NCBI RefSeq assembly: GCF_038624605.1
Contig: NZ_CP152020.1
Coordinates: 1,481,312 to 1,545,311 of the forward strand
Source of the DNA: Psychrobacillus sp. FSL K6-4046
Lineage (GTDB): Bacteria > Bacillota > Bacilli > Bacillales_A > Planococcaceae
Direction of reading: 5' to 3'
Length of the DNA stretch: 64,000 bases
Positions within the stretch are counted from its first letter, which is position 1. Each line of letters starts with the position of its first letter. The notes under the pieces are model-generated. The model had not been told where the DNA came from. It saw only the letters and a program-made list of their open reading frames with translations, and did no database searches. Shown here piece by piece: positions 8,278 to 24,346 of the stretch. A program made the position numbers and the translations under genes.

Positions 8278-8306
8278 AAACCTGAAGCCGTTTAGGCTTC
8301 AGGTTT
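8278..8306 (+). terminator. terminator of GHL10 gene, left copy of 29-bp target duplication
   Basis: AAACCTGAAGCC-GTTTA-GGCTTCAGGTTT, a perfect 12-bp stem with a 5-nt loop. The identical 29 bp recurs at 10014-10042 on the other side of the IS element, so this is the left copy of a target-site duplication spanning an entire intrinsic terminator. Here the T-run is interrupted by the IS end. Confidence 0.9.
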
Positions 8307-8318
8307 CAGAGTGTAGAC

Positions 8319-8355
8319 AAAAGGGTTGGAAATCGAAACGATTTCCAACCCTTTT
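8319..8355. terminator. bidirectional hairpin at left end of the IS
   Basis: AAAAGGGTTGGAAATCG pairs perfectly with CGATTTCCAACCCTTTT around an AAA loop. The flanking A and T runs allow termination in both directions: of the transposase transcript, and of read-through from the GHL10 gene. Confidence 0.8.
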
Positions 8356-8414
8356 GCTATTATCACAGTTTACATTCTGGAAAAAGAGCTAATTCAACTC
8401 TCGATTTTTTTGTT

Positions 8415-9773: not shown

Positions 9774-9806
9774 ATCCATCACCTCATTCATTTTTTAGAA
9801 GGCCCC

Positions 9807-9933
9807 GTTGATTGGAGCGAAGAACGGCGACTCCAGCGGGAACAGCGCGAGCTGAAGACCCTGGACTGAGCGCAGCGAGGGAAGCGGCTGAAGCCGTGCC
9901 CGCGGAAAGCGTCCGTTCGTAGCGGAAATCAAC
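9807..9933. repeat. GC-rich palindromic repeat inside the IS
   Basis: It starts GTTGATTGGAGCG and ends GCGGAAATCAAC, so the ends are inverted. Internally it has CGGCGACTCCAGCGGGAAC near one end and CGCGGAAAGCGTCCG near the other. These segments match the core of the dispersed repeats at 4950-5070, 24790-24935 and 31375-31530, while the middle differs. Palindromes of this design are common in Bacillales intergenic DNA; here one is carried by an IS, upstream of its transposase gene. Confidence 0.8.
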
Positions 9934-10013
9934 TCTTCCTCGCGTTACTTCTATTTTAAAAGAAAAAAGACTGTAGGCAAACTCCAAAATTTTTGGAGTT
10001 TGTCTACAGTCTG

Positions 10014-10045
10014 AAACCTGAAGCCGTTTAGGCTTCAGGTTTTTT
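10014..10045 (+). terminator. right copy of duplicated terminator
   Basis: The same 29-bp palindrome as 8278-8306, here followed by its original run of T (10040-10045). It still works as a terminator sequence and marks the right target-site duplicate of the IS1182 insertion. Confidence 0.9.
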
Positions 10046-10232: not shown

Positions 10233-11828
10233 TTGAGTCAACGGGTTGCATCTATTCAAGTCGGACAATTAATGGTTGTAGGATTTAAAGGGAAAATTGC
10301 ACCAGAGGGTATCATTGACCTGATCCATCGACACCGAATTGGTGGAATTATATTGTTTAGTCATAATGTTGGTACACCTCAGGAGCTCTTAAGTTTAACC
10401 TCTTCTCTTCAACGCGAAGCACAAAAAGCAGGCTATGAATATCCTCTTCTGATTTGCCTGGATCAAGAGAATGGGGTAGTACGTAGATTGGGAAAAGGGG
10501 CAACTACATTTCCTGGAGCAATGTCCATTGGAGCTACGGCAAACTCAGAAAATGCTTTTGATATAAGCCTTGCCACTGGAAAAGAGCTAAAAGAGTTAGG
10601 GGTTAATTGGAATTTAGCACCTGTACTAGATGTAAATAATAACCCGGATAATCCGGTTATTGGGGTTCGATCCTTCGGAGAAAATCCACATTTAGTAGCT
10701 GAATTTGGGAAAAATGCAATGAAGGGCTTGCAAAATGCAGGAGTGATCACTACATTAAAGCATTTTCCAGGTCATGGTGATTCAAATGTAGATTCCCATT
10801 TATCCCTTCCAGTGATAGGTCATACAAGAGCAAGGTTAGATGAAGTAGAGCTTGTACCATTCCAAGCTTGCATTGCCGAAGGGGCAGATACTATTATGTC
10901 TGCTCATGTTTATTTTCCTGCAATTGAGGACAGAGAAAATGTCCCTGCTACTTTGTCCAAAAAAGTAATTAGTGGGCTGTTGAGAGAGGAACTTGGATTT
11001 GACGGTGTGGTCACAACAGATTGTCTGGAAATGAAGGCAATTTCAGAAACAATTGGTACTGAAAAAGGTGCCGTTGAGGCCCTTAATGCAGGTGTAGACT
11101 TAGTAATGGTCTCACATACACATGAAGTTCAGCTACGTACGATAAAGGAATTAGAGCTAGCCTTAGCTCAGGGTGTATTACAAGAAGAGAGCTTAAAGGC
11201 TTCCCTTAATCGCATTAATAAACTGAAGGGAAAATATTTGTCATGGGAAAACACTCCCTTCCATTCCGAGTTTGTTTCACTTGGTAGTGAAGAACACAAA
11301 AATATAGCTGAGAAGGTATTTCAAGAGAGCGTTACAATCGTGAAAAATGAGGGCCTGCTCCCTTTACAGATGGATCAAAATATATTAGTCATTAATCCAC
11401 CTAACCAAACTATTTATGGTGTTGAGGATGTAAAAGAAATAAAAACAACACTAAGTGATGCAATGAAGGAATTTAGTAATCAAGTAGAGGCTTATGATTT
11501 ACCGACATCATTCACTCTTAAGGAAATGGATTTACTCATTCAAAGGGCAAAGGAATTTGATGTAATTGTTATTGGTACTCTATCTGTATCGGCTACTAGC
11601 TATGAGATAGAGTTGTTTAATAGACTTTTGAAATTAGGTATTCCGGTTGTTGGAGTAGCCATGAGAAATCCGTATGATTTAAGGTTTTTCCCGGATGTAA
11701 CGGCATATTTAGCAACCTATGAATTTACTTATCTTGCATTAAGAACCGCAGCTCAAGCGATATTTGGAAAAGTCTCGGTTAGTGGAAAACTTCCAGTAAC
11801 TTTACTTGAAACAAAGACAACATTTTAG
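10233..11828 (+). CDS. nagZ: cytoplasmic GH3 beta-N-acetylglucosaminidase NagZ
   Basis: NagZ removes non-reducing GlcNAc from GlcNAc-MurNAc or muropeptides. The 531-residue protein starts at TTG 10233 (SD GAAGGTG) and begins directly with MSQRVASIQVGQLMVVGFKG, without signal peptide or lipobox, so it is cytosolic. The catalytic His/Asp loop KHFPGHGDSNVDSHLSLP (about residues 176-193) and the nucleophile Asp in GVVTTDCLEMKAI (about 262) are present, followed by a second GH3 C-terminal domain. B. subtilis NagZ is exported and larger (~640 residues). It is the first gene of the salvage cluster. Loss of the export signal implies that GlcNAc-containing saccharides are imported intact before cleavage. 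Confidence 0.93.
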   Translation: MSQRVASIQVGQLMVVGFKGKIAPEGIIDLIHRHRIGGIILFSHNVGTPQELLSLTSSLQREAQKAGYEYPLLICLDQENGVVRRLGKGATTFPGAMSIGATANSENAFDISLATGKELKELGVNWNLAPVLDVNNNPDNPVIGVRSFGENPHLVAEFGKNAMKGLQNAGVITTLKHFPGHGDSNVDSHLSLPVIGHTRARLDEVELVPFQACIAEGADTIMSAHVYFPAIEDRENVPATLSKKVISGLLREELGFDGVVTTDCLEMKAISETIGTEKGAVEALNAGVDLVMVSHTHEVQLRTIKELELALAQGVLQEESLKASLNRINKLKGKYLSWENTPFHSEFVSLGSEEHKNIAEKVFQESVTIVKNEGLLPLQMDQNILVINPPNQTIYGVEDVKEIKTTLSDAMKEFSNQVEAYDLPTSFTLKEMDLLIQRAKEFDVIVIGTLSVSATSYEIELFNRLLKLGIPVVGVAMRNPYDLRFFPDVTAYLATYEFTYLALRTAAQAIFGKVSVSGKLPVTLLETKTTF

Positions 11829-11930
11829 GGGGTGAGGGATACATAAGCAGGGAGGGAAGAAGTGTTTACAAGAATAGTTTGTTTTGTTTCATAGCAATGA
11901 CTATTTTAAAAAAACTAGGGGGTATTACAA

Positions 11931-13532
11931 ATGAGAGGTAAAAAGATAATTTCGTTAGCACTTATAGCCGCATTAGCCTTAGCAGCATGTTCGGATGATG
12001 AAGCAAAAGGCACTGTAGAACCAGATAGCAAAAATTTTAACAAAACAGGAATGCCCATTGTAAACGAAACAATTAAGTTGGACATTTTTGCAGGTAAGTC
12101 AGCTACTACGGCTGATGATTGGAATGACGTTCTAATACTTAATGAATATGAAAAAATGTCAAATATAGATATTACCTGGCAGCAGGTACCAGCCGATGGA
12201 TTACAAGAAAAACGAAATCTTGCTTTAGCTAGTGGAACATTGCCTGATGTTTTTTATGCGGCAACTATTCCAGTAGGGGATTTACAGAAATACGGCCAAC
12301 AAGGCACATTTATTCCATTAAACGACTTAATAGAGGATTATGCACCTAATCTAAGTAAAGTGTTAGAAGCAAATCCTGAAATTAAGAAAGGGCTTACTTT
12401 CCCAGATGGGAATATTTATTCGTTCCCTACTATTTATTCACCAGAGTTCACGTCTCTATTAATAGGTGCTAAGCCTTGGATTAAACAAGATTGGTTAGAT
12501 CAATTAGGTATGAAAAATCCTGAGAATTTAGATGAGCTATATGCTTACTTGAAGGCAGTAAAAGAAACTGACCTGAATGGAAATGGAAAAAATGACGAGA
12601 TTCCTTTAAGTAGTGTTTCTATGACTCGTATACTACATTGGATTTCCGGAGCATTCGGTGTACAAAACAAAGGATCTCTTCATACTTTACTTGATACGGA
12701 TTCTGCTGGTGAGCTTCGTTTCTTCCCAACGGCTCCAGAGTATAAAGAAATGTTAGAGTATATGCATAAATTATATTCAGAAGGCTTAATCGATCAAGGT
12801 ATTTACTCCATTGACGTTCCTAAATATTTGGCTGCTGCAGCTGAGGAGTTGTATGGAGCTACTCAATTCTACAACCCTGTTGAACTCTTTGGAGAAGAAA
12901 TCGGTAAGGACTATGTGGTAGGAAATGCACTTGCTGGCCCAAGTGGGGAAAAATTATACACAGGAATTACCTCTCCATTAAGAGACTTAGGAAACTTTGC
13001 TATTACGAGTGAAAATAAATACCCTGCTGAAACGGTAAGATGGTTAGATCATTTCTACAGTGATGAGGGAGCTTTGATGTTCTTCATGGGAATTGAAGGA
13101 GAAACTTTTGAACAAACAGCAGATGGACCGAAGCTATTAGATAAAATCACAAATAGTAAAGACGGACTTACGATGACACAAGAACTAGCTAAATATTTAA
13201 TCAATCCAGGTGGAAATCATCCAGTAATGATTACAGATGATTACTTCACTGGTTCAGAGAATGCACCAGGTGATAAAGAGGCTACGAAAGAGCTTGAACC
13301 ATATTTAATAGATGAAGTATGGCCTAACTTTACCTATACTGCAGAGGAAAATGATCGAGTATCAGTTTTAAAAGCAGATATTGATAAATACGTACAAGAA
13401 ATGCAAGCGAAATTTATAACAGGAGAAACTCCTTTAACTGAATGGGACTCTTATGTGGGAACCATTGAAAAAATGGGATTAAAGGACTTCATGGAGCTTC
13501 AACAAAAGGCGTATGAAAGATACAAAGATTAA
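11931..13532 (+). CDS. ABC-importer substrate-binding lipoprotein (LplA-like)
   Basis: A 533-residue extracellular sugar-binding protein. The N-terminus MRGKKIISLALIAALALAAC is a lipoprotein signal with lipobox LAAC and lipidated Cys20. The mature protein has the family-1 solute-binding fold typical of the long LplA/YtcQ-type proteins (WKDYLDE-like repeats, ELYAYLKAVKETDLNGNGKNDEIPL with the DxNGNGxxDE loop). It is anchored outside the membrane and delivers substrate to the two permeases downstream. Placement between nagZ and namZ suggests a peptidoglycan-derived saccharide as ligand, but specificity cannot be read from the sequence. SD: AGGGGG before ATG 11931. A large stem-loop follows the gene. 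Confidence 0.9.
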   Translation: MRGKKIISLALIAALALAACSDDEAKGTVEPDSKNFNKTGMPIVNETIKLDIFAGKSATTADDWNDVLILNEYEKMSNIDITWQQVPADGLQEKRNLALASGTLPDVFYAATIPVGDLQKYGQQGTFIPLNDLIEDYAPNLSKVLEANPEIKKGLTFPDGNIYSFPTIYSPEFTSLLIGAKPWIKQDWLDQLGMKNPENLDELYAYLKAVKETDLNGNGKNDEIPLSSVSMTRILHWISGAFGVQNKGSLHTLLDTDSAGELRFFPTAPEYKEMLEYMHKLYSEGLIDQGIYSIDVPKYLAAAAEELYGATQFYNPVELFGEEIGKDYVVGNALAGPSGEKLYTGITSPLRDLGNFAITSENKYPAETVRWLDHFYSDEGALMFFMGIEGETFEQTADGPKLLDKITNSKDGLTMTQELAKYLINPGGNHPVMITDDYFTGSENAPGDKEATKELEPYLIDEVWPNFTYTAEENDRVSVLKADIDKYVQEMQAKFITGETPLTEWDSYVGTIEKMGLKDFMELQQKAYERYKD

Positions 13533-13545
13533 TAAATGAGTTGCT

Positions 13546-13589
13546 TTCTAATTTGCAGAGGAAGTATCTTCCTCTGCAATATTAGAAAA
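13546..13589 (+). other. stem-loop between binding-protein and permease genes
   Basis: TTTCTAATTTGCAGAGGAAG (13546-13565) pairs with a complementary arm at 13569-13589 with one bulge. No T-run follows, so it is more likely an mRNA-stability or partial-termination element. Such elements commonly allow excess binding protein over permeases in ABC operons. Confidence 0.7.
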
Positions 13590-13611
13590 ACGGGGAGAAG
13601 GGGGTAAAAAT

Positions 13612-14568
13612 ATGCACATTAATGAAACAAAAGCAAAGCATGGGGTTGTTCCGAAAGTGAGTCGTTTTGCTAAAATTAAAAGAAATTTCCTAAAAAGCTG
13701 GCAGCTCTATGTTTTCTTACTTCCTGCGCTTTTATATTTTTTAATCTTTCACTATGTTCCTATGTATGGAGTACAAATAGCCTTTAAAAACTTTATGGCT
13801 AATCAAGGGATTTGGGGAAGTCCGTGGATTGGATTTGATCATTTTACGCGCTTTTTTGATTCATACTACTTTTGGAGATTAATAAAAAATACAATCATTC
13901 TTAGTCTATATCAATTGTTATTATTCCCTTTGCCAATTATTTTGGCCCTTTCATTAAACGAGCTGAAAAATGGTGCTTTTAAAAAATGGGCTCAAACACT
14001 TACATATGCTCCTCACTTTATATCCGTAGTTGTAGTTGTTGGGATGATTGTCATTTTCTTAGATCCTGCAAATGGTTTAGTCAATCAAATCATCACTCTC
14101 TTTGGCGGGGAAAAAATACGCTTTTTAGATGAGGCTAGTTGGTTTAGACATATATTTGTTTGGTCTGGGGTATGGCAAACATTAGGCTGGAGCTCCATAA
14201 TTTACTTAGCCGCATTAGCAGGCATTAATCCAGAACTACATGAGGCGGCAGAAGTAGACGGTGCATCCAAATTACAACGAATTCTACATATCAACATACC
14301 GGGTATTTTCCCAACCATTGTCGTTCTACTTATATTGAACATTGGTAGCTTTATGTCTGTAGGATTTGAAAAGGTTTTACTATTACAAAATAGCTTGAAC
14401 TCTGAAACCTCAGATGTCATACAAACCTATGTATATCAAGCTGGATTACTAGAAGGTCAATATAGTTTTGCAGCAGCTATTGGTTTATTTGACTCCATCA
14501 TTAACATAGCTTTACTAATAACCTTCAATTATGTTGCAAGAAAAACTAGCAATAACAGCTTATGGTAA
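13612..14568 (+). CDS. ABC sugar permease, LplB type
   Basis: A 318-residue inner-membrane permease with six predicted membrane segments and the cytoplasmic EAA loop ELHEAAEVDGASKLQRILHINIPGI (contacts the ATPase). The N-terminal FLLPALLYFLIFHYVPMYGVQIAFKNF is typical of LplB/YtcO-like partners of large LplA-type lipoproteins. It pairs with the next gene as a heterodimeric pore. SD GAAGGGGGT. No ATP-binding subunit is encoded anywhere in the cluster; Bacillales importers of this class use a shared MsmX-type ATPase encoded elsewhere. Confidence 0.92.
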   Translation: MHINETKAKHGVVPKVSRFAKIKRNFLKSWQLYVFLLPALLYFLIFHYVPMYGVQIAFKNFMANQGIWGSPWIGFDHFTRFFDSYYFWRLIKNTIILSLYQLLLFPLPIILALSLNELKNGAFKKWAQTLTYAPHFISVVVVVGMIVIFLDPANGLVNQIITLFGGEKIRFLDEASWFRHIFVWSGVWQTLGWSSIIYLAALAGINPELHEAAEVDGASKLQRILHINIPGIFPTIVVLLILNIGSFMSVGFEKVLLLQNSLNSETSDVIQTYVYQAGLLEGQYSFAAAIGLFDSIINIALLITFNYVARKTSNNSLW

Positions 14569-14580
14569 GGAGGGGTTCAA

Positions 14581-15471
14581 ATGAAAAAAGTTAGTTTGTC
14601 TGATAAAGGCTTTGACGTGCTAAACAAAATATTCTTAACGGTCATCGTCATTTTAATAGTTTATCCGCTTGTCTTCGTTATTAGTGCCTCCATAAGTGAT
14701 CCCTTAGCCGTAAGCTCAGGGAAAATGTGGTTATGGCCAGTCGATATTACATTTGAAGGTTATAGAAAAATATTACAAAATGACTCTATTTGGCTAGGGT
14801 ATCGCAATACCATTTTATATACCGCAGTAGGAACACTTCTCCATTTATTTGTTCTGTTGCCATGTGCTTATGCACTTTCTAGAAAAGAGTTAATGGGAAG
14901 TAAGTATATCTTATGGTTTGTTCTATTCACAATGATGTTCAGTGGTGGTTTAATTCCAACTTATTTAGTGATCAAAACGTTAGGAATGCTTGATACCATT
15001 TGGGCTATTGTAATACCTGGAGTGGTTGGGGCTTGGTCTATTTTAGTAGCGAGAACTTTCTTCCAAAGCAGTATTCCGGATCAGTTAGTAGAAGCGGCTA
15101 AAATTGACGGAGCATCTGATTTTTATATGTTTATCAAAATTGTATTACCACTATCATTGCCAATTATAGCGGTTATGGCATTGTTCCATGCAGTTGGCTT
15201 ATGGAATCAATATTTTAATGCGTTAATTTATCTGTCTGATCGGGATAAATATCCTCTTCAGCTCATTTTGAGGGAGATATTAGTAGTAAATCAGGCACAA
15301 TTAGGCGAAGGGTCTGGGGAACAAACGGAATCGCTCATCCAACAGGTGAGGACAGGTGGTCTTATTAAATATGCGGTCATCATCATTTCCTCTTTACCAT
15401 TACTAATTGTTTACCCGTTTTTACAACGATTCTTTGTCCAAGGCGTATTAATCGGTTCGATTAAAGAATAG
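14581..15471 (+). CDS. ABC sugar permease, LplC/YtcP type
   Basis: A 296-residue permease with six membrane segments and the EAA loop LVEAAKIDGASDFYMFIKIVLPLSLP. The FVISASISDPLAVSSGKMWLWP and GLWNQYFNALIYLSDRDKYPLQL segments are characteristic of LplC/YtcP/CarB-type proteins. It begins 12 nt after the first permease with an AAGGAGGGG site, so both are translated from one message and form the transmembrane channel. The gene is followed by a palindromic repeat at 15481-15599. Confidence 0.92.
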   Translation: MKKVSLSDKGFDVLNKIFLTVIVILIVYPLVFVISASISDPLAVSSGKMWLWPVDITFEGYRKILQNDSIWLGYRNTILYTAVGTLLHLFVLLPCAYALSRKELMGSKYILWFVLFTMMFSGGLIPTYLVIKTLGMLDTIWAIVIPGVVGAWSILVARTFFQSSIPDQLVEAAKIDGASDFYMFIKIVLPLSLPIIAVMALFHAVGLWNQYFNALIYLSDRDKYPLQLILREILVVNQAQLGEGSGEQTESLIQQVRTGGLIKYAVIIISSLPLLIVYPFLQRFFVQGVLIGSIKE

Positions 15472-15480
15472 CTTTTCGTG

Positions 15481-15599
15481 GTGTCTAGCTTCGGCGCCTT
15501 GCCCCTTGGGTCAAATGGTTAAAAGTTACGGTGGCTGAAGAGCTGCCTCCTCGCTTTTTTCATTTGCCTGTCGGGGCAGGGATAGGCGCCTACGCTTTT
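15481..15599. repeat. second family of palindromic intergenic repeat
   Basis: This sits between the second permease and the YesL-like gene. The ends GCTTCGGCGCC and GGCGCCTACGC are inverted, and TTGCCCCTTGGGTCAAATGG faces CATTTGCCTGTCGGGGCA, giving a long imperfect hairpin with a GGCTGAAGAGCTGCCTCCTC centre. I recognise this type as a widespread repeat of Bacillales genomes. It is unrelated to the 345-bp family above and shows the operon has tolerated insertion of a folded element. Confidence 0.8.
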
Positions 15600-15628
15600 C
15601 AATTTAAACATAGAAGGGAGAGTCTACT

Positions 15629-16246
15629 ATGAACAGTTTTGTTAATGGATACTATCAGTTTGCGGTGTGGGCAATGAGGTTAGCATACTTGAACATACTT
15701 TGGTTTGTATTCACACTAGTAGGCTTGTTCTTTTTTGGACTCATGCCTGCTACAGCGGGTATGTTTGCTGTAGTAAGAAAATGGGTTTCTGGAGATACAG
15801 ATATTCCCGTATTTCAAACCTTTTGGAAATCTTATCGCCAAGAATTTTTTAAAGCTAATCTACTCGGATACATACTTGCCGGTATAGGATATCTACTATA
15901 TATTGAGCTGCAAATTTTAAGAGCTCAGGAGAATATGGTTTACTTTGTGGCAAGCTATGGGGTAATAGCACTTTTTATAGTTTTACTTATTGTATTGTTA
16001 TACTCTTTCCCAATCTTTGTACATTTCAATATAAGCACCTTACAAAATATTAAATGGGCGTTTGTAATAGGAGTCATTCATCCTATACTAACAATTGCAT
16101 TGATTGCAATATTATTATTTGTTCACTATGTAACTTTTATAACCATTCCCGCTTTACTCTTTTTCTTTGGTGGAAGTGTAACCGCCTTTATCCTAACGTG
16201 GGGAGCGTCTAAAACGTTTACAAAGTATGAGCCCTCAAATGTCTGA
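15629..16246 (+). CDS. YesL-like DUF624 membrane protein
   Basis: A 205-residue integral membrane protein with about five hydrophobic segments. It has the DUF624 opening MNSFVNGYYQFAVWAMRLAYLNILW and FGLMPATAGMFAVVRKW, as in B. subtilis YesL. Genes of this family are regularly found beside LplABC-type ABC sugar importers, but their role is not established; an accessory to transporter assembly or signalling is assumed. SD GAAGGGAG before ATG 15629. Co-directional with its neighbours, 16 nt before namZ. Confidence 0.88.
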   Translation: MNSFVNGYYQFAVWAMRLAYLNILWFVFTLVGLFFFGLMPATAGMFAVVRKWVSGDTDIPVFQTFWKSYRQEFFKANLLGYILAGIGYLLYIELQILRAQENMVYFVASYGVIALFIVLLIVLLYSFPIFVHFNISTLQNIKWAFVIGVIHPILTIALIAILLFVHYVTFITIPALLFFFGGSVTAFILTWGASKTFTKYEPSNV

Positions 16247-16262
16247 TTAGTGGAGGAAACAA

Positions 16263-17411
16263 ATGAAGCTAGGGGTAGAAGTGTTTTTGGAAGATGGCTA
16301 TAAACCTTTTATCGGAAATCGTATAGGCTTGGTGACGAATATGACGGGTGTAAACCAAAAGCTCACACCGACTATTGAATTGTTTGTCGATCATCCTGGC
16401 ATAAATCTTACAGCTTTATATGGTCCAGAGCATGGGATACGTGGAGATGCTAAAGAAGGAGAAGGAGTTCAGTCTTCGATAGACCCTTACACAAATCTTC
16501 CCGTTTACAGTCTATATGGTGATTCAAGGAAGCCTACAAAAGAGATGTTAGAATCTGTTGATGTCATTGTTTTTGATCTGCAGGATATTGGTTCAAGATA
16601 CTTCACGTACATTTATACAATGGCATATGTAATGGAAGCCTGTGGAGAGCAAGGAAAACAGTTTGTTGTATTGGATCGACCAAATCCAATTTCTGGTGAC
16701 CGAATAGAAGGAAACCTTGTGGAAGAGGATGTTCGCTCCTTTGTTGGTTTGTTACCTATTCCAAATAGACATGGGATGACTGTAGGAGAACTTGCACAGT
16801 TGTTTAAATATAAGTTTGGATATAATTGTGACTTAACAGTTGTTCCAATGGAGGGTTGGCTACGATCCATGTACTTTGATGACACTCCTGTATTGTGGGT
16901 ACCCCCTTCTCCAAATACTACTAATATTGATATGAATGTATTATATCCTGGAACCTGTTTAATAGAAGGAACTAACTTATCTGAAGGGCGAGGCACTACA
17001 AGACCCTTTGAATGGATCGGTGCTCCTTATGTGGATGGGCAAAGGCTAGCAAAGGTATTTAATGAGAAAAAGATAGAAGGCGTTATCGCAAGGCCCATTT
17101 CTTTTAAACCAACTTATCAAAAGCATATGAATGTTATTTGCAGCGGAATTCAGCTACATATTGTCGATCGCCGCATATTAAATGCTTGGGAAACTGGTCT
17201 CTTGCTTATAGAGACAATCGCAGAAATGTATCCAAAGGATTTCTCATTTATAGAAAATGGGCAGAAGAAGTATTTCTTTGACTTGTTGGCTGGATCTAAA
17301 AGTATGAGGGAACGTATTTGGAATGGAACGACAAAAGAATATATAGAGAATTGTCTATCTTTAATAGAAGGCTTTCAAAAAGAAAAGAAAATATACGACA
17401 TATATAACTAG
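16263..17411 (+). CDS. namZ: exo-beta-N-acetylmuramidase NamZ (DUF1343/GH171), no signal peptide
   Basis: NamZ (B. subtilis YbbC) releases terminal MurNAc from the non-reducing end of peptidoglycan saccharides. This 382-residue homologue has the family motifs [51 protein letters not shown] and [20 protein letters not shown]. It begins directly with [20 protein letters not shown], the start of the catalytic domain, and has no signal peptide, whereas YbbC (~414 residues) is exported. SD GTGGAGGAAAC before ATG 16263. Its start 16 nt after the YesL gene and 10 nt before murQ indicates an operon. Together with the cytosolic NagZ it implies degradation of imported GlcNAc/MurNAc oligomers inside the cell. 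Confidence 0.92.
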
Positions 17412-17421
17412 GATGATTAAA

Positions 17422-18342
17422 ATGAATGATTTATCTAATTTGAATAAACTGTCAACCGAACAGAGAAATAGCCATTCCATAAACATTGATCATATGTCTA
17501 CTAAAAGCATTTTAGCAATGATTAATGAAGAGGATAAACGTGTCGCTGAATGTGTACAGGATGAAATAGATGATATTGAAAGGGCTGCAGAGGCTGTATT
17601 CAACTCATTGAAATCTGGTGGAAGACTATTTTATGTTGGAGCGGGAACAAGTGGGAGACTAGGTATTTTAGATGCGGTCGAATGTCCACCCACCTTTGGG
17701 ACACCGTCCAATTTAGTGCAGGCTGTTATGGCAGGTGGCCTTTCAGCTTTCGAAAAAGCGGTAGAGGGCGCCGAGGATAGTCCAGAGAAAGGTAAAGAAG
17801 ATTTAAGAGAAAGAGCTTTGTCTAGTTATGATGTAGTGATAGGAATAGCAGCGAGTGGAAGAACGCCATATGTAATTGGGGCATTAGAATACGCTAATGA
17901 GGTGGGTGCACAAACGATCAGTTTAACTGCAAACAAAAATTCCTCCATTAGTGAACATGCTACTATTAAAATTGAAGTAGAGACTGGACCAGAGGTAATT
18001 ACGGGGTCTACAAGGATGAAAGCAGCTACTGCACATAAGCTCATTTTAAATATGATCTCAACAACGGTTATGATTAAGCTAGGTAAGGTTTATGAAAACT
18101 TAATGGTAGATGTATCCGTTAGCAATGAAAAGCTAAAAGAGCGAGCGAAGGGTATTATTCAAACGATTACTAACCAGTCATATCAAGAGGCAGAAGAATT
18201 TTTAGAACTTGCAAATAATGAAGTAAAACCTGCGATAGTAATGATGAAAGCTAATGTGAATTATGAAGAGGCAATAGATTATATTAAACAGGCAAACGGT
18301 TTTGTAAGAAAGGCTATTGAATTGGCGGATAGGAATTTATAA
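17422..18342 (+). CDS. murQ: N-acetylmuramic acid-6-phosphate etherase
   Basis: MurQ splits MurNAc-6-P into GlcNAc-6-P and D-lactate in the cytoplasm, the committed step of MurNAc use. The SIS domain is clear: [21 protein letters not shown] (about residues 70-90) and the [18 protein letters not shown] segment (about residues 195-212) are diagnostic. The usual length is ~300. The frame is open from ATG 17413, but the AGGATGA site at 17410-17416 serves ATG 17422 ([16 protein letters not shown]), which matches the normal N-terminus, so 306 residues are given. Its substrate would come from the kinase at 21187 or from AnmK, since no PTS (MurP) is present in the cluster. Confidence 0.96.
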
Positions 18343-18356
18343 GAGGAGGGAAAAGG

Positions 18357-20201
18357 ATGAATGAACATAAGATGCTAATCTTGGACGATTTCAATAATGC
18401 CAATCTTAGTGACTATGAAACCAATCATTCCTTTGTCTCCTCCTATTATTTATCTTTAAACAAAGATTACGTCAAGCATGGAAAGTATAGCTTAGAGGTT
18501 AGCTTTAATTACGGAGGTTGGGTTAAAGGAAATGGAGCTATGTATATCAAGTTTAAAAAGAAGTTAGTGACACAGCAGATGCCAAAAAAGCTGGCAGTGT
18601 GGGTCCATAGTGATGGAAAAACACCATGGCTACGAGCAACCATAATTGATGGAGATAATGAACGGAAGATAATTAACTTAACTAATGGAAATATAAGCTG
18701 GAATGGATGGAAATACTTAGATGTAGAGTTGGAGCAAAACTGGAAGCTTCCATTAAGGTTGGAGCAAATATATGCAGTTGAAACAAATTTGGTTAATCAA
18801 AAAGACTCCAGTATTAATGGAAAGTTCTATTTGGATCATATTACATTTGTATATGTAGATGATCAAGACTTAACGGGACCAATTTTTAGTGACATATTAC
18901 CGCAAAATGAGAAGATATATAGAAATTCCTTTGTCTTCTCTGCAGTAGTGAGCGATGACATGTCAGGTGTAGATTTCGATTCTTTAATCATGAAAATCAA
19001 TAATAAATTGGTTGTTCCTTCTGTTCAAGCGAACAAAATATCTTATCATGTAAAAGAGCTTCAAGAGGGAAATTGTAAAGTTAGCATCCAAGTAAAAGAT
19101 TTGGCTGGTAATTGGTCGGTACCGCATCTAGAAAAAAATTATTTAATAGATTTAAATGAAGATCATGAATGTCCTATTATATCTGATGTCACACCAAGTG
19201 ATTCCGCTGTAATTCATACAGCTACACCGCGAATTGGCTTTCGACTTTGTGATGAACATAGTGGGATTGAAAAGAACGATATAATTCTTACTATTAATAA
19301 TGAAAAGCAAAAAGTGTTCTATGATGAAGAAACCGGCTGGGGATTTGCAATATCTAGTAGTCATTTAATAGATGGTCCACATCACCTTTCTATTCATACA
19401 AAGGATCGAGCGGGAAATGAAATGGACCCATATCAGCAAAATTTTGTTGTTCACTCTATAAAAGGGCCAATAGACGAGGACAACTTTATAGTAGGCATAA
19501 TTCCAGATACACATACGCTGGAGCATGGAAAAGCTGCTTTAGTACATTTATTGGAGGAAGCACCTGAGTTTATCATACATATGGGTGACTTTGTAGATCA
19601 AGGAACAGAAGAGGAATTTAAGTTAGCGAAGACATCTCTATTTTCGGATATGAAGAAACATATACCCATATTAACGCTTGCTGGGAATCATGAAGCATTT
19701 CGAGGGAACTTAACGCTATATCAGAGCTTTATGGGTTCACCATCCTATCATTTTACGTATGGGAAAGTACTGTTTATCATTTTAAATAGTGCTTTAGGGC
19801 AAAGTCTCACGCTTTCAGACTCAACCCAATTAACTTACCTGAAGGAAGTATTATCTACCCATGAGCAAAAGCATATTGTAGTACTTACTCATGTACCTAC
19901 TAAGGACCATTTTGGAACTGCACATGAAATGGTATATGAAGATTCCGTTCAATTAGTAGAAATACTTACCGAACACAAAAGTGAATTACCTTCTAGAGAC
20001 ATTGTAGTTTTATTTGGACATTTACATACGCAAGACCAATGGGAAGTTAGCGGAGTGAGATACATTATTACAGGCAATGCCTCACCAAAAAAATATGTAA
20101 TGAAGCAGGAGAATAACATTGGTTACGGACTACTCCATATACAATCTAACGGTATGTATTATGAATACAAGCCTTTTAACTTAATACCTCCGGTGACCTA
20201 G
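18357..20201 (+). CDS. multidomain calcineurin-like metallophosphoesterase, novel member of MurNAc cluster
   Basis: A 614-residue protein with three parts. Residues ~1-170 look like a beta-sandwich carbohydrate-binding module (ILDDFNNANLSDYE..., WVHSDGKTPWLRATIIDGD, FYLDHITFVY). Residues ~175-370 are two Ig/bacterial cadherin-like modules (GPIFSDILPQNEKIYRNSFVFS; CPIISDVTPSDSAVI), and the rest is a calcineurin-like phosphoesterase. Metal motifs are all present: PDTH (~383), HMGDFVDQG, AGNHEA (~443), LTHVP and FGHLH (~555). No signal peptide is visible although the domains are typical of wall-associated enzymes. SD GAGGAGGG 7 nt before ATG; 14 nt after murQ. A phosphodiester or phosphomonoester on a wall sugar, such as a teichoic-acid linkage, is a guess. 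Confidence 0.85.
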   Translation: MNEHKMLILDDFNNANLSDYETNHSFVSSYYLSLNKDYVKHGKYSLEVSFNYGGWVKGNGAMYIKFKKKLVTQQMPKKLAVWVHSDGKTPWLRATIIDGDNERKIINLTNGNISWNGWKYLDVELEQNWKLPLRLEQIYAVETNLVNQKDSSINGKFYLDHITFVYVDDQDLTGPIFSDILPQNEKIYRNSFVFSAVVSDDMSGVDFDSLIMKINNKLVVPSVQANKISYHVKELQEGNCKVSIQVKDLAGNWSVPHLEKNYLIDLNEDHECPIISDVTPSDSAVIHTATPRIGFRLCDEHSGIEKNDIILTINNEKQKVFYDEETGWGFAISSSHLIDGPHHLSIHTKDRAGNEMDPYQQNFVVHSIKGPIDEDNFIVGIIPDTHTLEHGKAALVHLLEEAPEFIIHMGDFVDQGTEEEFKLAKTSLFSDMKKHIPILTLAGNHEAFRGNLTLYQSFMGSPSYHFTYGKVLFIILNSALGQSLTLSDSTQLTYLKEVLSTHEQKHIVVLTHVPTKDHFGTAHEMVYEDSVQLVEILTEHKSELPSRDIVVLFGHLHTQDQWEVSGVRYIITGNASPKKYVMKQENNIGYGLLHIQSNGMYYEYKPFNLIPPVT

Positions 20202-20259
20202 TAAAAAGGGAGAGGTATAGTTAAAAAGCTATTTCAAGGAAGAAATGAGTGGATAAATT

Positions 20260-21126
20260 ATGTCATCTGCCAACGGTGGACTAGTTATGCTAAATGAAAT
20301 GGTGAATACATTGCCACCCTCTGAGAAGAAAATTGCAAGATATATATTAAATCATCCTCAAGAGGCAATTTCTTTAACTGCAGTTGAATTAGGGAAAAGA
20401 AGCTCTACTAGTGGGGCGGCAGTCATCAGGCTTTGTAAGTCATTAGATTTAAAAGGCTTACAAGATCTGAAGCTCAGAATTGCAGGAGATTTACAAAAGA
20501 CAACAGAGCATGGTTTTAGAGATATTGAACCGAACGAACCGATTATGTCGATAATAGATAAGATGACAAACAATAGTATTAAAACGATTCGAGAAACGGC
20601 AGAAATGCTAAATACCGAAGAATTAGAAAAAGCTATTGACCTGCTTAGAGTGGCAAATACAATCCATTTTGTTGGCGTAGGTGCTTCTAATATCATTGCA
20701 CAAGATGCTCAACAAAAGTTTTTACGCATTAACAAGAACTCTTATGCCTTTCCAGATATGCATTTAGCAATGACACTCGTAGCTACTGCGGAAAAAGGGG
20801 ATGTGGTTGTGGCAATTTCCTTTTCTGGAGAGACATCAGAAGTTGCTAGAGTTTTAGAGCTTGCTAAGGAAAAAGGTATCTCTATTATCAGTATTACGAA
20901 ATATGGTAACTCCATCGTTTCTAAAATTGCAGACATTAAGCTATATACGTCTGCCACTAGAGAATCAACGTTTCGTAGTGGCGCTACCTCGTCTCGAATT
21001 GGACAGCTGCAAGTGGTGGATATTTTGTTTATGGGAGTTGCTTCTCTGCAATATGAAGAAACGGTTAAGTATTTAGATGCTACCCGAGATGCGGTCAATT
21101 TTCTATCAAAGGATTCAAAGAAATAA
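20260..21126 (+). CDS. murR: RpiR-family transcription regulator MurR
   Basis: A 288-residue regulator with an N-terminal winged/helix-turn-helix domain (PPSEKKIARYILNHP..., SSTSGAAVIRLCKSLDLKGLQDLKLRI, about residues 15-85) and a C-terminal SIS sugar-phosphate-binding domain (IHFVGVGASNIIAQDAQQKF, VVVAISFSGETSEVARVLELAKEKG). It aligns along its start with B. subtilis MurR (MATGGLTII... LPPSE), which justifies ATG 20260 despite a weak SD. RpiR/MurR proteins sense sugar phosphates such as MurNAc-6-P and control the salvage genes. A candidate operator palindrome lies before nagZ at 10165. The downstream gap contains a weak hairpin. Confidence 0.92.
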   Translation: MSSANGGLVMLNEMVNTLPPSEKKIARYILNHPQEAISLTAVELGKRSSTSGAAVIRLCKSLDLKGLQDLKLRIAGDLQKTTEHGFRDIEPNEPIMSIIDKMTNNSIKTIRETAEMLNTEELEKAIDLLRVANTIHFVGVGASNIIAQDAQQKFLRINKNSYAFPDMHLAMTLVATAEKGDVVVAISFSGETSEVARVLELAKEKGISIISITKYGNSIVSKIADIKLYTSATRESTFRSGATSSRIGQLQVVDILFMGVASLQYEETVKYLDATRDAVNFLSKDSKK

Positions 21127-21186
21127 TTATTCATAAGCTGACTCTTCTATGAGTTGGCTTGTTTATTGTCAAAAGGGGTGTAGAGA

Positions 21187-22164
21187 ATGTATGTGTTAGG
21201 GATTGATGGCGGAGGAACGAAAACTACTGGAATCATTGCTACATCTAAAGGTGAAGTAGTAGCAAAAGCGACGGTTGGTGGAACTAATATTAATAGTATG
21301 GGGAAAATAGCTGTCCAATCAGAACTGCAAAAGCTTATAAGGGAACTAAAAGAATTGGCACCACAAAATTTCTTACTAGTAAAGCGTGTATTTGCTGGTA
21401 TGGCAGGAGCGGGCAATATAACCAACCAAGACGCCTTAAAAGCCATACTACAACCTCTATTTTCTTCAGAGGTAAGTATTACTATAGACCATGATGCGAT
21501 TACAGCACTTTATTCCGGGACAATAGGAAAACCAGGGATAGTCCAAATTGCTGGAACTGGAGCAATCACATACGGTGTGAATGAAGCCTCTGATCGAGCG
21601 CGTGTAGGAGGATGGGGCCATCTGTTTGGAGATCAAGGTAGTGGATATGCCATTGGTAGAGATGCATTAGAAGCTGCCTTTAAAGCGAGGGATGGTCTCA
21701 TGGAACAAACATTATTGTCTGACCTACTTATCCAGCATTTCAATAAAGAAGAATTACCGGATATTATTCCGGTTATTTATCAGGCAGACAATCCGAAAAA
21801 GCTGATATCCTCGCTCACGGTACTTGTTATGAAGGCGGTAGAACGTAATGATTTATTGGCTAAGCATATCATCGATCATAATGGAGCAGAGCTTGGAATG
21901 GCGATATCTGCTATTGTAAAACAGCTATTCAGCCAAGGGAATGATGTTATACGAGTTGTTTTAGTAGGTGGACTTTTTAATAGATATGACATTTTGAAAG
22001 AATCAATCGAAAGAACGATTAAAAATGAAGGTATTCATGTAGATATAATCTTTCCAAAAATATTACCGGCTGGTGGGGCAGTAGTTGCTGCTCTTTTAGA
22101 AGAAAATATAGAAATAGATGAGTATTTTTTAGAAACATTTAATAGAACAAACTATGATAATTGA
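21187..22164 (+). CDS. murK: BadF/BcrA-type amino-sugar kinase (NagK/MurK-like)
   Basis: A 325-residue ASKHA-fold kinase. MYVLGIDGGGTKTTGIIATS is the phosphate-1 motif, GIVQIAGTGAITYGV and GGWGHLFGDQGSGYAIGRDA are the second phosphate/sugar motifs typical of GlcNAc kinases, and VVLVGGLFNRYDI is the adenosine motif. In Clostridium acetobutylicum a homologue (MurK) phosphorylates both MurNAc and GlcNAc at O6. Here it would convert the free sugars released by NamZ and NagZ to MurNAc-6-P for MurQ and GlcNAc-6-P for NagA, replacing a phosphorylating PTS. SD AAGGGGTG 6-10 nt before ATG 21187. The symbol is by context; NagK is possible. Confidence 0.85.
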   Translation: MYVLGIDGGGTKTTGIIATSKGEVVAKATVGGTNINSMGKIAVQSELQKLIRELKELAPQNFLLVKRVFAGMAGAGNITNQDALKAILQPLFSSEVSITIDHDAITALYSGTIGKPGIVQIAGTGAITYGVNEASDRARVGGWGHLFGDQGSGYAIGRDALEAAFKARDGLMEQTLLSDLLIQHFNKEELPDIIPVIYQADNPKKLISSLTVLVMKAVERNDLLAKHIIDHNGAELGMAISAIVKQLFSQGNDVIRVVLVGGLFNRYDILKESIERTIKNEGIHVDIIFPKILPAGGAVVAALLEENIEIDEYFLETFNRTNYDN

Positions 22165-22173
22165 GGTGAAAGC

Positions 22174-23121
22174 ATGCAGTTGATAGAATGGCGGTTAGAT
22201 AGACTAGATGAATTGGTGAGTTTGTGGAATCAAGAGCTAGGTAGAGATTTTCCAATGCGAAAGGAGCTATTTGAGCAAAATAGTTTTAAGGATGAAAATA
22301 TTTGCTATGATGCTTCGCGAATAGCTGTAAATGAGCAAGGTCAAATTATCGGGTTTGTAGTAGGTAAAAGGTGGCAGGAAGAATTAGAGATACCGATGAA
22401 GGATAAAACAGGCTGGATTCAAGTAATCCTTGTTCATCATGAGTACCGAAACAAGGGAGTCGGCTCTAATCTATTAAGGCATGCAGAGGACGCTTTTCAA
22501 TTAGCTGGAATGCAGGAAATATTATTAGGAAAAGACCCATGGCACTATTTCCCTGGCGTCCCATTAGATAGCTATGAAGATTGGTTTGAAAAAAGAGGCT
22601 ATCATTCTTTTGGAAAAGAGTTCGATATGCTCTGTAAATATGAAGGGGAGGTAGCGAAAGAATTACCTGCCCTTCCTAATGTTGAGTTTTCGATATTAAA
22701 GCATGAGGAAAAAGAGGCATTCCTTGCATTTTTACATCGATGCTTCCCAGGACGATGGGAATACGAGGCTCATCAATATTTCCAAAAGGGTGGGAATGGT
22801 AGGGAATTTGCCGTTCTTAAAAAAGAAAATAAGATTATTGGGTTTTCAAGAATTAACGATAATAGCTCGCCCTTAATCGCTCAAAACGTGTACTGGGCAC
22901 CGCTATTCAGCCAAGAATTAGGCGGGGTAGGACCTTTAGGGGTCGATTCTGCGGAACGCGGGAATGGCTACGGTATAGCAATCGTACAAGCTGCTATAGC
23001 TTTTCTAAGAAATAGAGACATTAATCATATTGTCATTGATTGGACAGGGCTTGTCGATTTTTATCGTAAATTAGATTATAAGGTTTGGAAAGGCTATACC
23101 TCTTATAGAAAAGTACTCTAA
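22174..23121 (+). CDS. two-domain GNAT acetyltransferase (GlmA-like)
   Basis: A 315-residue protein with two GNAT modules. Acetyl-CoA loops are HHEYRNKGVGSNLLRHAE (residues ~90-107) and DSAERGNGYGIAIVQAAI (~256-273). It starts 9 nt after the kinase gene with a GAGGTGAAAGC site. In C. acetobutylicum the gene beside murK encodes GlmA, a glucosamine/glucosaminide N-acetyltransferase that repairs de-N-acetylated glucosamine. The same position here suggests this protein re-acetylates GlcN residues from the deacetylated peptidoglycan common in Bacillales before NagZ/NagA processing. The fold is certain; the substrate is inferred from neighbourhood. Confidence 0.82.
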   Translation: MQLIEWRLDRLDELVSLWNQELGRDFPMRKELFEQNSFKDENICYDASRIAVNEQGQIIGFVVGKRWQEELEIPMKDKTGWIQVILVHHEYRNKGVGSNLLRHAEDAFQLAGMQEILLGKDPWHYFPGVPLDSYEDWFEKRGYHSFGKEFDMLCKYEGEVAKELPALPNVEFSILKHEEKEAFLAFLHRCFPGRWEYEAHQYFQKGGNGREFAVLKKENKIIGFSRINDNSSPLIAQNVYWAPLFSQELGGVGPLGVDSAERGNGYGIAIVQAAIAFLRNRDINHIVIDWTGLVDFYRKLDYKVWKGYTSYRKVL

Positions 23122-23161
23122 TATGCTTTTATTATAAATTTCTTTATAGGGAGAGATGTAT

Positions 23162-24346
23162 TTGGAAGAGCAAACAAGCTATGTAGTTGGCCTTATGTCC
23201 GGAACATCACTGGATGGGGTAGATGCAGCTCTCATCAACATTATTGATATTAATGACAATTTGCAAATAGATTTAGTAACGTATTTGTCAGTCCCTTACT
23301 CAAGGGAACTAAAAGAAAGGCTTAGAGAAATTTGCACTCCTGAAATAGCAAAAGTAGCAGACATTAGTGGGATGAATATGTATTTAGCAGAAATCTTCTC
23401 TGAGGCTACCTTATCTATTATTCAACAAGCAAATTTAACGCCGAAAGATATTTTACTTGTAAGCTCCCATGGTCAAACTATCTTTCACCAGCCGACTTCC
23501 ATTAACATTGAAGGAAGAGATGTTACATCTACTCTACAAATAGGGGACATAGCAGTAATTGCTGAACGTACCGGTATTACAACTGTTGGTGATTTTAGGA
23601 CACGAGACATGGCTGTAGGGGGAGGGGGAGCTCCGTTAGTCCCTTATGCTGATCATATGCTTTATACGAATAAGAGTCATGGGAGAGTGCTCGTTAATAT
23701 AGGAGGAATAGCTAACATAACTGTCCTTCCGAAAGGAGCTACAGCATCGGAGGTTATTGCATACGATACCGGTCCAGGAAATATGATCATTGATGCATTT
23801 GTCCATTGGGCAACAAATGGGAAGCGTGACTATGATCGCGAAGGGGCTATCGCAGCAAGCGGCAATGTGAATGAAAAATGGCTAACTAAGCTACTTGCTT
23901 ATCCGTTCTTCCATCAGGATTACCCAAAAAGCACCGGTAGAGAGATGTTTGGAAGTCAATTTGCGAGAATGCTGTGGGACGAAGCTGAACATTTAGCTAT
24001 TAGTCTGGATGATCGGATTGCTACCATTACTGCATTAACTGCACGGACGATTGCTACAGAGATTTTGAAATTCATTGAATCTGCACAGATAGAAGAAGTA
24101 ATTGTTAGTGGCGGGGGGAGACATAATTTGACCCTTTTCAACAGCCTGCAAGTTTATATGTCAGATCGTGTTTCTGTGGTTGGAATGGAAGCATATGAAA
24201 TAAGCGCAGATGCTAAAGAGGCGGTAATTTTCGCTTTATTAGGCTATCAATGCTTAAAGAAAAAAACAAATAACCTCCCTTCAGCTACCGGAGCTAAAAA
24301 AGCAGTTGTTATGGGCAAAATAGCTTGGGGAAATTCGATTGTGTAA
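23162..24346 (+). CDS. anmK: 1,6-anhydro-N-acetylmuramic acid kinase AnmK
   Basis: AnmK opens the anhydro bond of anhydroMurNAc and phosphorylates it to MurNAc-6-P in the cytosol. The protein of ~394 residues carries YVVGLMSGTSLDGVDAALIN at the N-terminus (phosphate-1), SSHGQTIFHQP, TVGDFRTRDMAVGGGGAPLVP, NIGGIANITVLP and YDTGPGNMIIDAFV, all diagnostic. The frame is open from ATG 23156, but AGGGAG (23148-23153) is only 2 nt from it and 8 nt from TTG 23162, so TTG is preferred. It is the last gene of the cluster. Its product feeds MurQ. Gram-positive cells seldom make anhydro-muropeptides themselves, so an environmental source or a side activity is possible. Confidence 0.95.
   Translation: MEEQTSYVVGLMSGTSLDGVDAALINIIDINDNLQIDLVTYLSVPYSRELKERLREICTPEIAKVADISGMNMYLAEIFSEATLSIIQQANLTPKDILLVSSHGQTIFHQPTSINIEGRDVTSTLQIGDIAVIAERTGITTVGDFRTRDMAVGGGGAPLVPYADHMLYTNKSHGRVLVNIGGIANITVLPKGATASEVIAYDTGPGNMIIDAFVHWATNGKRDYDREGAIAASGNVNEKWLTKLLAYPFFHQDYPKSTGREMFGSQFARMLWDEAEHLAISLDDRIATITALTARTIATEILKFIESAQIEEVIVSGGGRHNLTLFNSLQVYMSDRVSVVGMEAYEISADAKEAVIFALLGYQCLKKKTNNLPSATGAKKAVVMGKIAWGNSIV

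What the first reader, a model, noticed from the sequence alone, without database searches (positions are those of the whole stretch)
10233..24346. MurNAc/GlcNAc salvage cluster built on an ABC importer and a sugar kinase instead of the MurP PTS
The sequence shows nagZ, LplABC-type importer genes, a YesL-like gene, namZ, murQ, a phosphoesterase, murR, a MurK/NagK-type kinase, a GNAT and anmK on one strand within 14 kb. B. subtilis imports MurNAc by MurP with phosphorylation (known pathway). Here no PTS gene occurs, and a BadF-type kinase could make the phosphorylated sugars after uptake. Inferred pathway: import of cell-wall saccharides, cleavage by NamZ and NagZ, phosphorylation by the kinase, then MurQ. 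I know of no described Gram-positive system with exactly this set.
Basis: partly seen in the sequence, partly recalled or inferred. Interest (0 to 1): 0.85.

Follow-up and report, generated by a model that had tools for sequence, protein, structure and literature searches.

The report
PTS-free cell-wall sugar recycling operon
A Gram-positive bacterium carries a gene cluster that appears to import fragments of bacterial cell wall with an ATP-driven pump and dismantle them inside the cell, a route that in many relatives stands where the textbook sugar importer is missing, although the pump has not been tested on such sugars.

Summary
Observation confirmed: twelve same-strand genes at 10233-24346 encode a GH3 NagZ, an LplA-type ABC importer, DUF624, NamZ, MurQ, a phosphoesterase, a MurR-like regulator, a BadF-type kinase, a GNAT and AnmK. 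The complete genome has no MurP; its only glucose-type EIIBC is GlcNAc-specific.
New: (1) NamZ and NagZ lack signal peptides, so cleavage should be cytoplasmic. (2) GNAT and kinase are closest to structures recalled as C. acetobutylicum GlmA and MurK, the nearest precedent. (3) Among 250 family genomes MurQ is in 103, MurP in 40. NamZ genomes split: 31 with MurP (secreted-type NamZ in the 30 examined) and 21 without (cytosolic-type NamZ beside an ABC importer in all 21). (4) Of 55 related loci, 54 carry ABC permeases of six distinct classes and none holds MurP; importers were exchanged while the enzymes stayed. (5) Upstream is a secreted Cwp19-like GHL10 gene, separated here by an IS1182 insertion, which could make the anhydroMurNAc that AnmK uses.
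Verdict: a real, recurrent, PTS-independent variant of a known salvage pathway. Substrates, kinase specificity and regulation are inferred; the phosphoesterase is unexplained.

The parts
6740..8269 (+). GHL10 protein, 509 aa, signal-like hydrophobic N-terminus; Cwp19-like, inferred secreted lytic transglycosylase that could supply anhydroMurNAc ends
   Evidence: Pfam GHL10 280 bits; closest solved chain Cwp19 5oq2, 370 bits over residues 32-403; Cwp19 shown to be a lytic transglycosylase in PMC6016235 (passages); directly upstream of nagZ in L035 and L036; only GHL10 over cut-off in the genome
6434..6448 (.). best match in the window to the operator-like motif TGAAATnnnATTTCA
   Evidence: 13.2 bits with a matrix trained without Psychrobacillus; same site in L035, weaker (11.8) in L036; not significant for 64 kb (88 of 200 simulated sequences reach it)
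8306..10014 (.). IS1182-family element, 1709 bp (transposase 8415-9791 on the - strand), between GHL10 and nagZ
   Evidence: NCBIfam IS1182 466 bits; 27-bp repeat, a terminator-like hairpin behind GHL10, at 8279 and 10015, and matching element ends; absent between these genes in L035 and L036
10233..11828 (+). GH3 beta-N-acetylglucosaminidase (NagZ-type), TTG start, no signal peptide; KHFPGHG motif present
   Evidence: the L035 copy has a hydropathy maximum of 1.87 in its first 40 residues
11931..13532 (+). LplA-type solute-binding lipoprotein
   Evidence: nearest solved chains 5g5y/5g5z (210 bits), AlgQ1/2, Smon0123
13612..14568 (+). ABC permease (LplB-type)
14581..15471 (+). ABC permease (LplC-type)
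15629..16246 (+). DUF624 membrane protein (YesL/MusI-like), probable importer accessory
   Evidence: Pfam 106 bits; MusI_fam 31.5 bits, below cut-off 160
16263..17411 (+). NamZ exo-beta-N-acetylmuramidase, form without signal peptide; the only NamZ of the genome
   Evidence: (L004)
17413..18342 (+). MurNAc-6-phosphate etherase MurQ
   Evidence: TIGR00274 407 bits, over cut-off
18357..20201 (+). modular metallophosphoesterase: N-terminal beta-sandwich, Ig-like part, GpdQ/purple-acid-phosphatase-like domain; PDTH, GDF, GNHE, GHLH motifs present; no signal peptide; role unknown
20260..21126 (+). MurR/RpiR-type regulator
21187..22164 (+). BadF-type sugar kinase, MurK-like
   Evidence: [quoted passage not shown] DGGGTKT motif
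22174..23121 (+). double-GNAT, GlmA-like glucosamine/glucosaminide N-acetyltransferase
   Evidence: closest solved chain 5kf1, 182 bits over residues 12-311; also the acetyltransferase half of RmNag 4zm6, 95 bits
23156..24346 (+). 1,6-anhydroMurNAc kinase AnmK

Best explanation
A peptidoglycan-sugar salvage operon that works without the PTS. Inferred order: short, largely peptide-free glycan fragments, some with anhydroMurNAc ends made outside by enzymes such as the GHL10 protein, are bound by the LplA-type lipoprotein and imported whole by the two permeases, driven by a MalK/MsmX-type ATPase encoded elsewhere. Inside, the GlmA-like GNAT re-acetylates glucosamine ends, NagZ removes GlcNAc and NamZ removes MurNAc from non-reducing ends, AnmK phosphorylates anhydroMurNAc and the MurK-like kinase phosphorylates MurNAc and GlcNAc. 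MurQ turns MurNAc-6-P into GlcNAc-6-P, which NagA takes on. The MurR-like protein controls the cluster. Shown here: gene content, order, conservation, absence of MurP, lack of signal peptides, presence of NagA and of two MalK-type ATPases. Inferred: every substrate, the ATPase pairing, the regulation.
For: Family assignments. No MurP in the complete genome. NagA over cut-off (361 vs 226 bits); two MalK-type ATPases, of which L002 has no permease in the 3-kb stretch seen. Hydropathy maximum of the first 40 residues of NamZ at most 1.98 in 55 of 55 cytosolic-type loci, at least 2.77 in 30 of 30 family loci of the other type, L005-L034. Survey of the same 250 family genomes: NamZ 52, full-length MurP-like match 40 (314 bits or more; next row 206), MurQ over cut-off 103. 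Crossed by hand: all 40 MurP genomes have MurQ; of 52 NamZ genomes 31 have MurP and 21 do not; in all 21 (window plus 20 regions) both ABC permeases and MurQ lie beside NamZ. Of 55 cytosolic-NamZ loci 54 carry at least one ABC permease (53 both), 53 a MurR-like gene, 48 MurQ, none MurP within the locus.
Against: No substrate was tested. The lipoprotein's solved relatives bind alginate or glycosaminoglycan pieces (AlgQ recalled; Smon0123 from abstract starts) or bear no ligand name. A second GH3 gene with an anchor-like hydrophobic N-terminus lies elsewhere in the genome, so some cleavage may be external. Outside the family the split is not absolute: Salipaludibacillus L070, L072 and L074 combine secreted-type NamZ with an ABC importer. 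The kinase is seen in only 33 of 55 loci (lower bound, loci end at 10 kb or a contig end). GHL10 beside the cluster is seen only in Psychrobacillus (2 of 55). No strong operator-like site precedes nagZ in the window.
Confidence: 0.72

Rival explanations
1. The importer carries free MurNAc (or GlcNAc) released by external enzymes; cytosolic NamZ and NagZ only trim side products, and the kinase does the main work.
For: Salipaludibacillus loci pair an ABC importer and MurK-like kinase with secreted-type NamZ; 15 of 20 sampled MurQ+ MurP- NamZ- genomes have CUT1-type permeases, kinase and MurQ without NamZ; an anchored GH3 exists in this genome.
Against: In the window and 55 related loci NamZ has no signal peptide; in the window and the 20 family regions it sits next to permeases and murQ. 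AlgQ- and Smon0123-type binding proteins take oligosaccharides (recalled).
Confidence: 0.15
2. The importer takes other amino-sugar oligosaccharides, such as chitin pieces, and MurQ, NamZ and AnmK are only neighbours.
For: NagZ is closest to GH3 N-acetylglucosaminidases 4zm6 and 6k5j, the first from a fungus and linked to chitin metabolism (PMC4680927 abstract start); L052 has a GlcNAc-like PTS and a chitin disaccharide deacetylase in place of the ABC genes.
Against: NamZ, MurQ and AnmK act on peptidoglycan sugars (known families) and stay together beside six distinct importer classes; chitin use needs none of them.
Confidence: 0.08
3. The cluster imports peptide-bearing muropeptides, and an amidase elsewhere frees the peptides.
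For: In 36 of 55 relatives a beta-lactamase-fold protein, a possible cytosolic AmiE, is in the locus; Opp-type importers stand in L131 and L138.
Against: The window and both Psychrobacillus relatives lack that protein in the cluster; the reducing-end products of Cwp19 had unsubstituted MurNAc (PMC6016235 passage).
Confidence: 0.05

Closest known systems
Clostridium acetobutylicum murein salvage enzymes (MurK, GlmA, NagZ; Reith, Berking and Mayer 2011; Reith and Mayer 2011; papers not held, content recalled)
   Same: Kinase and GNAT are closest to chains recalled as these enzymes; intracellular cleavage implied in PMC4974736 (passage).
   Different: The window adds cytosolic NamZ, AnmK, an LplA-type importer, DUF624, a phosphoesterase and GHL10. 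The C. acetobutylicum locus was not examined.
Bacillus subtilis murQ-murR-murP-amiE-nagZ-ybbC(namZ)
   Same: MurQ, MurR-type regulator, NagZ and NamZ in one cluster.
   Different: MurP PTS and extracellular AmiE and NagZ (PMC5061867 passages); here no MurP, no signal peptide on NagZ and NamZ, ABC importer plus kinase.
Tannerella forsythia murTKQ
   Same: PTS-independent uptake, then a MurNAc kinase and MurQ (PMC5790795 passages).
   Different: [quoted passage not shown] the kinase is a distant relative (23-26 bits to the 8ow entries; their origin in T. forsythia is recalled).
Agrobacterium YejBEF-YepA
   Same: ABC importer used for peptidoglycan recycling (PMC9790009, abstract start).
   Different: Gram-negative; its importer is of another, peptide-type ABC group (recalled).
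Gram-negative AmpG-NagZ-AnmK-MurQ recycling
   Same: Anhydromuropeptide import, NagZ, AnmK and MurQ in the cytosol (PMC5061867 passage, for NagZ, AnmK and cytosol; AmpG recalled).
   Different: No AmpG-type permease over cut-off here; ABC importer instead.

Membership tests
MurP-PTS MurNAc pathway (E. coli, B. subtilis) | MurP EIIBC transporter-phosphotransferase | tested here: not met
   one EIIB in the genome, GlcNAc type; best MurP-model match in the genome E 2.3e-7, the EIIB part of that protein
MurP-PTS MurNAc pathway (E. coli, B. subtilis) | MurQ etherase | tested here: met
   407 bits vs cut-off 302
C. acetobutylicum-type cytoplasmic salvage | MurK-type MurNAc/GlcNAc kinase | tested here: inconclusive
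   closest solved chain 8zo3, 149 bits; activity not testable
C. acetobutylicum-type cytoplasmic salvage | GlmA-type glucosaminide N-acetyltransferase | tested here: inconclusive
   182 bits over residues 12-311 to 5kf1, by sequence only; that 5kf1 is GlmA is recalled; activity not testable
C. acetobutylicum-type cytoplasmic salvage | NagZ without signal peptide | tested here: met
   N-terminus read; hydropathy maximum 1.87 in the L035 copy
C. acetobutylicum-type cytoplasmic salvage | same gene order as in C. acetobutylicum | not tested
   that genome was not looked at and one of the papers was asked for and is not held
NamZ (GH171) | NamZ N- and C-terminal domains with conserved core | tested here: met
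   290 and 161 bits; invariant columns shared with two secreted-type forms
NamZ (GH171) | exo-beta-N-acetylmuramidase activity | not testable with these tools
   needs an enzyme assay
Secreted-type NamZ | signal peptide | tested here: not met
   hydropathy maximum 1.43 (L004) against 2.77 or more in L005-L034
Cwp19-type GHL10 lytic transglycosylase | GHL10 domain with secretion signal | tested here: met
   280 bits; hydrophobic N-terminus read, 2.76 and 2.96 in L035 and L036
Cwp19-type GHL10 lytic transglycosylase | formation of 1,6-anhydroMurNAc | not testable with these tools
   needs an assay
LplA/AlgQ-type ABC importer | large family-1 binding protein plus two permeases, no ATPase gene in the cluster | tested here: met
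LplA/AlgQ-type ABC importer | peptidoglycan-sugar ligand | not testable with these tools
   needs a binding assay
AnmK | AnmK domain over curated cut-off | tested here: met
   352 bits vs 24; 460 vs 387
Gram-negative AmpG pathway | AmpG permease | tested here: not met
   best TIGR00901 match 20 bits vs cut-off 350

The most novel reading that the evidence does not exclude
A Gram-positive counterpart of the AmpG pathway: a secreted GHL10 lytic transglycosylase makes anhydro-ended, peptide-free disaccharides, a dedicated LplA-type importer brings them in whole, and cytosolic GlmA, NagZ, NamZ, AnmK, MurK and MurQ finish the job. Across Bacillales at least six distinct ABC importer classes have taken over this task in place of MurP, so several groups of binding proteins without a known ligand would be peptidoglycan-sugar receptors.
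Probability: 0.35. Interest if true: 0.68.

Novelty: new variant of a known kind. Interest (0 to 1): 0.5.

Why it matters
In 63 of 103 MurQ-bearing genomes of this family no full-length MurP-like match is found (crossed by hand), so a search for MurP alone would miss most of them. If ABC importers fill the gap, MurNAc recycling is commoner than such a search suggests, and several sugar-binding lipoproteins gain a testable ligand. The split between secreted-type NamZ with MurP and cytosolic-type NamZ with an ABC importer gives a simple genomic rule, with known exceptions outside the family, for where wall fragments are cut.

Tried and rejected
The operator motif: TGAAATnnnATTTCA recurs upstream in relatives (32 of 40 non-Psychrobacillus loci at or above the 99% level of a base-shuffled control; these loci also trained the matrix, so this is an in-sample figure). 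In the window its best site scores 13.2, just under that level (13.3), and is not significant in 64 kb (88 of 200 simulations reach it). I keep it as weak support only. An earlier 21-base matrix had the window in its training set and was replaced.

Of the 42 MurQ+ MurP- NamZ- genomes only 20 were looked at: 15 CUT1-type ABC, 2 Opp-type, 3 without an adjacent ABC importer, one of these (L137) with a NagE-like PTS gene in the locus. The 31st NamZ+MurP genome (G047) had no NamZ locus laid out. MurP was called at 314 bits or more, below the curated cut-off of 516, which none of the 250 reaches; of the 14 controls one passes the cut-off.

Wanted but not possible: protein-database searches with NamZ and the phosphoesterase (switched off), and two papers asked for by id (not held).
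Full report
Observation. The genome is one contig of 3,885,841 bases, 99.97% complete; the nearest named loci are from Psychrobacillus (NamZ 99% and 84% identical in L035 and L036).

MurP. The EIIB domain of glucose-type PTS transporters (PF00367) occurs once, in a protein over the curated cut-off for the GlcNAc-specific transporter (660 vs 553 bits) with 29 bits to the MurP model. MupG, the phospho-muramidase of the S. aureus PTS route (role recalled), is not found, and no AmpG-type permease is over cut-off.

Where the enzymes work. NagZ starts with TTG behind a plausible ribosome-binding site and has no signal peptide; nor do NamZ, the kinase, the GNAT, AnmK or the phosphoesterase by inspection of their N-termini (hydropathy of the near-identical L035 copies, and of L004 for NamZ). 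In B. subtilis NagZ and AmiE act outside the cell (PMC5061867, passages); that its NamZ is secreted is recalled. A second GH3 protein with a hydrophobic anchor-like N-terminus is encoded elsewhere in this genome, so external cleavage is not excluded.

Kinase, acetyltransferase, GHL10. [quoted passage not shown] its origin in C. acetobutylicum is recalled). The GNAT matches 5kf1 over nearly its full length (182 bits), which I recall as C. acetobutylicum GlmA; it also matches the acetyltransferase half of the fungal enzyme RmNag (95 bits), whose GH3 half is the best match of the window's NagZ (412 bits). In RmNag the acetyltransferase is required for cleavage of (GlcN)2 but not of (GlcNAc)2 (PMC4680927, passages). 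This supports a glucosamine-repair role, useful where wall sugars are de-N-acetylated (recalled for many Bacilli). The GHL10 gene at 6740-8269 is the only one over cut-off in the genome, matches Cwp19 with 370 bits, and Cwp19 is a demonstrated lytic transglycosylase (PMC6016235, passages). It precedes nagZ directly in both Psychrobacillus relatives; here an IS1182-type element of 1709 bp has entered the terminator-like hairpin behind it, duplicating 27 bp. The link to the cluster is by position and a weak operator-like site only, and was seen only in this genus.

Comparative survey. In 250 genomes of the family (the same handles in the three calls), NamZ is found in 52, MurQ over cut-off in 103, and a full-length MurP-like match in 40 (314 bits or more, next row 206; none reaches the curated cut-off of 516). 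Crossing the lists by hand: all 40 MurP genomes have MurQ; 63 of 103 MurQ genomes have no MurP. Of the 52 NamZ genomes, 31 have MurP and 21 do not. In a sample of 20 of the 42 MurQ genomes without MurP and NamZ, 15 have a CUT1-type ABC importer with kinase and a beta-lactamase-fold protein, 2 an Opp-type importer, 3 no adjacent ABC importer.

Wider loci. From 45 named loci plus the unnamed regions, 55 distinct loci hold the cytosolic NamZ type. They contain at least one ABC permease in 54 (both in 53), a MurR-like gene in 53, MurQ in 48, NagZ in 44, a GlmA-like GNAT in 38, a second GNAT in 38, AnmK in 36, the beta-lactamase-fold protein in 36, a PIG-L deacetylase in 34, the kinase in 33, the phosphoesterase in 6, GHL10 in 2 and MurP in 0 (lower bounds, since loci end at 10 kb or at a contig end, and whole genomes of the named species were not searched for MurP). 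The one locus without ABC permeases, L052, has a GlcNAc-like PTS gene and a chitin disaccharide deacetylase. Permeases fall into seven classes at 50% identity (single linkage), six of them in these 55 loci. On the NamZ tree the importer label needs 11 changes among the cytosolic-type rows (quick tree, 10 of 57 inner branches open, long branches flagged), which points to repeated exchange of importers while the enzymes stayed. Against a strict rule, Salipaludibacillus L070, L072 and L074 combine secreted-type NamZ with an ABC importer and kinase.

Ligand. The lipoprotein's nearest solved relatives are 5g5y/5g5z (deposited only as an ABC transporter substrate-binding protein; recalled as pneumococcal), AlgQ1/AlgQ2 and Smon0123, the last part of an importer of glycosaminoglycan pieces (PMC5430744 and PMC5717064, search listing and abstract starts only). 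An acidic amino-sugar disaccharide is thus plausible, not shown.

Regulation. The motif is common upstream of relatives' clusters but weak in the window, as told under Tried and rejected.

Phosphoesterase. It carries PDTH, GDF, GNHE and GHLH motifs. PDTH and GHLH are kept in the four closer relatives (L035, L036, L055, L063) and altered in the two Paenibacillus ones; GNHE is kept in all seven sequences. Its catalytic part resembles GpdQ. A role in removing wall teichoic acid phosphate from MurNAc would fit, but nothing here tests it.

Literature. Ten searches of the open-access library were made. In the seven directed at this question none of the listed titles or abstract beginnings describes an ABC importer for MurNAc or its disaccharides in a Gram-positive; I saw listings, not the papers, and subscription journals are mostly not held. 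S. coelicolor is already noted to have MurQ without MurP (PMC5061867, passage), and a 2026 preprint speaks of an unknown MurNAc transporter in mycobacteria (PMC13041923, passage). The C. acetobutylicum kinase paper, the closest precedent, is not held.

Verdict. Ordinary in its enzymes, notable in its arrangement: a recurrent PTS-independent, probably cytoplasmic variant of MurNAc salvage, with an importer that deserves a binding test.

Noticed in passing
8279-10041: An IS1182-family element sits in the terminator-like hairpin behind GHL10 and is flanked by two copies of the whole 27-bp palindrome; the two Psychrobacillus relatives lack it there.
   Followed up: yes
L035, L036 against L101, L103-L106: Psychrobacillus NamZ groups with Oceanobacillus, Pseudogracilibacillus and Paucisalibacillus (support 86), away from other 'same genus' genomes whose clusters use another importer; this suggests horizontal transfer of the cluster (quick tree).
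   Followed up: partly
L035, L036, L055, L063, L066, L067: The modular phosphoesterase occurs only in loci without the beta-lactamase-fold protein (6 of 6).
   Followed up: partly
many of L037-L062 and L103-L119: A PIG-L type deacetylase (34 of 55 loci) and a second double-GNAT protein (38 of 55) are frequent members of these clusters; their roles are unknown.
   Followed up: no
L002 (own genome, C1:353832): MalK/UgpC-type ATPase without importer genes in the 3-kb stretch seen, a candidate partner for the importer.
   Followed up: partly
L131, L138: Opp-type ABC importer genes with an SBP_bac_5 binding protein sit with MurQ and AnmK, another apparent replacement of MurP.
   Followed up: partly
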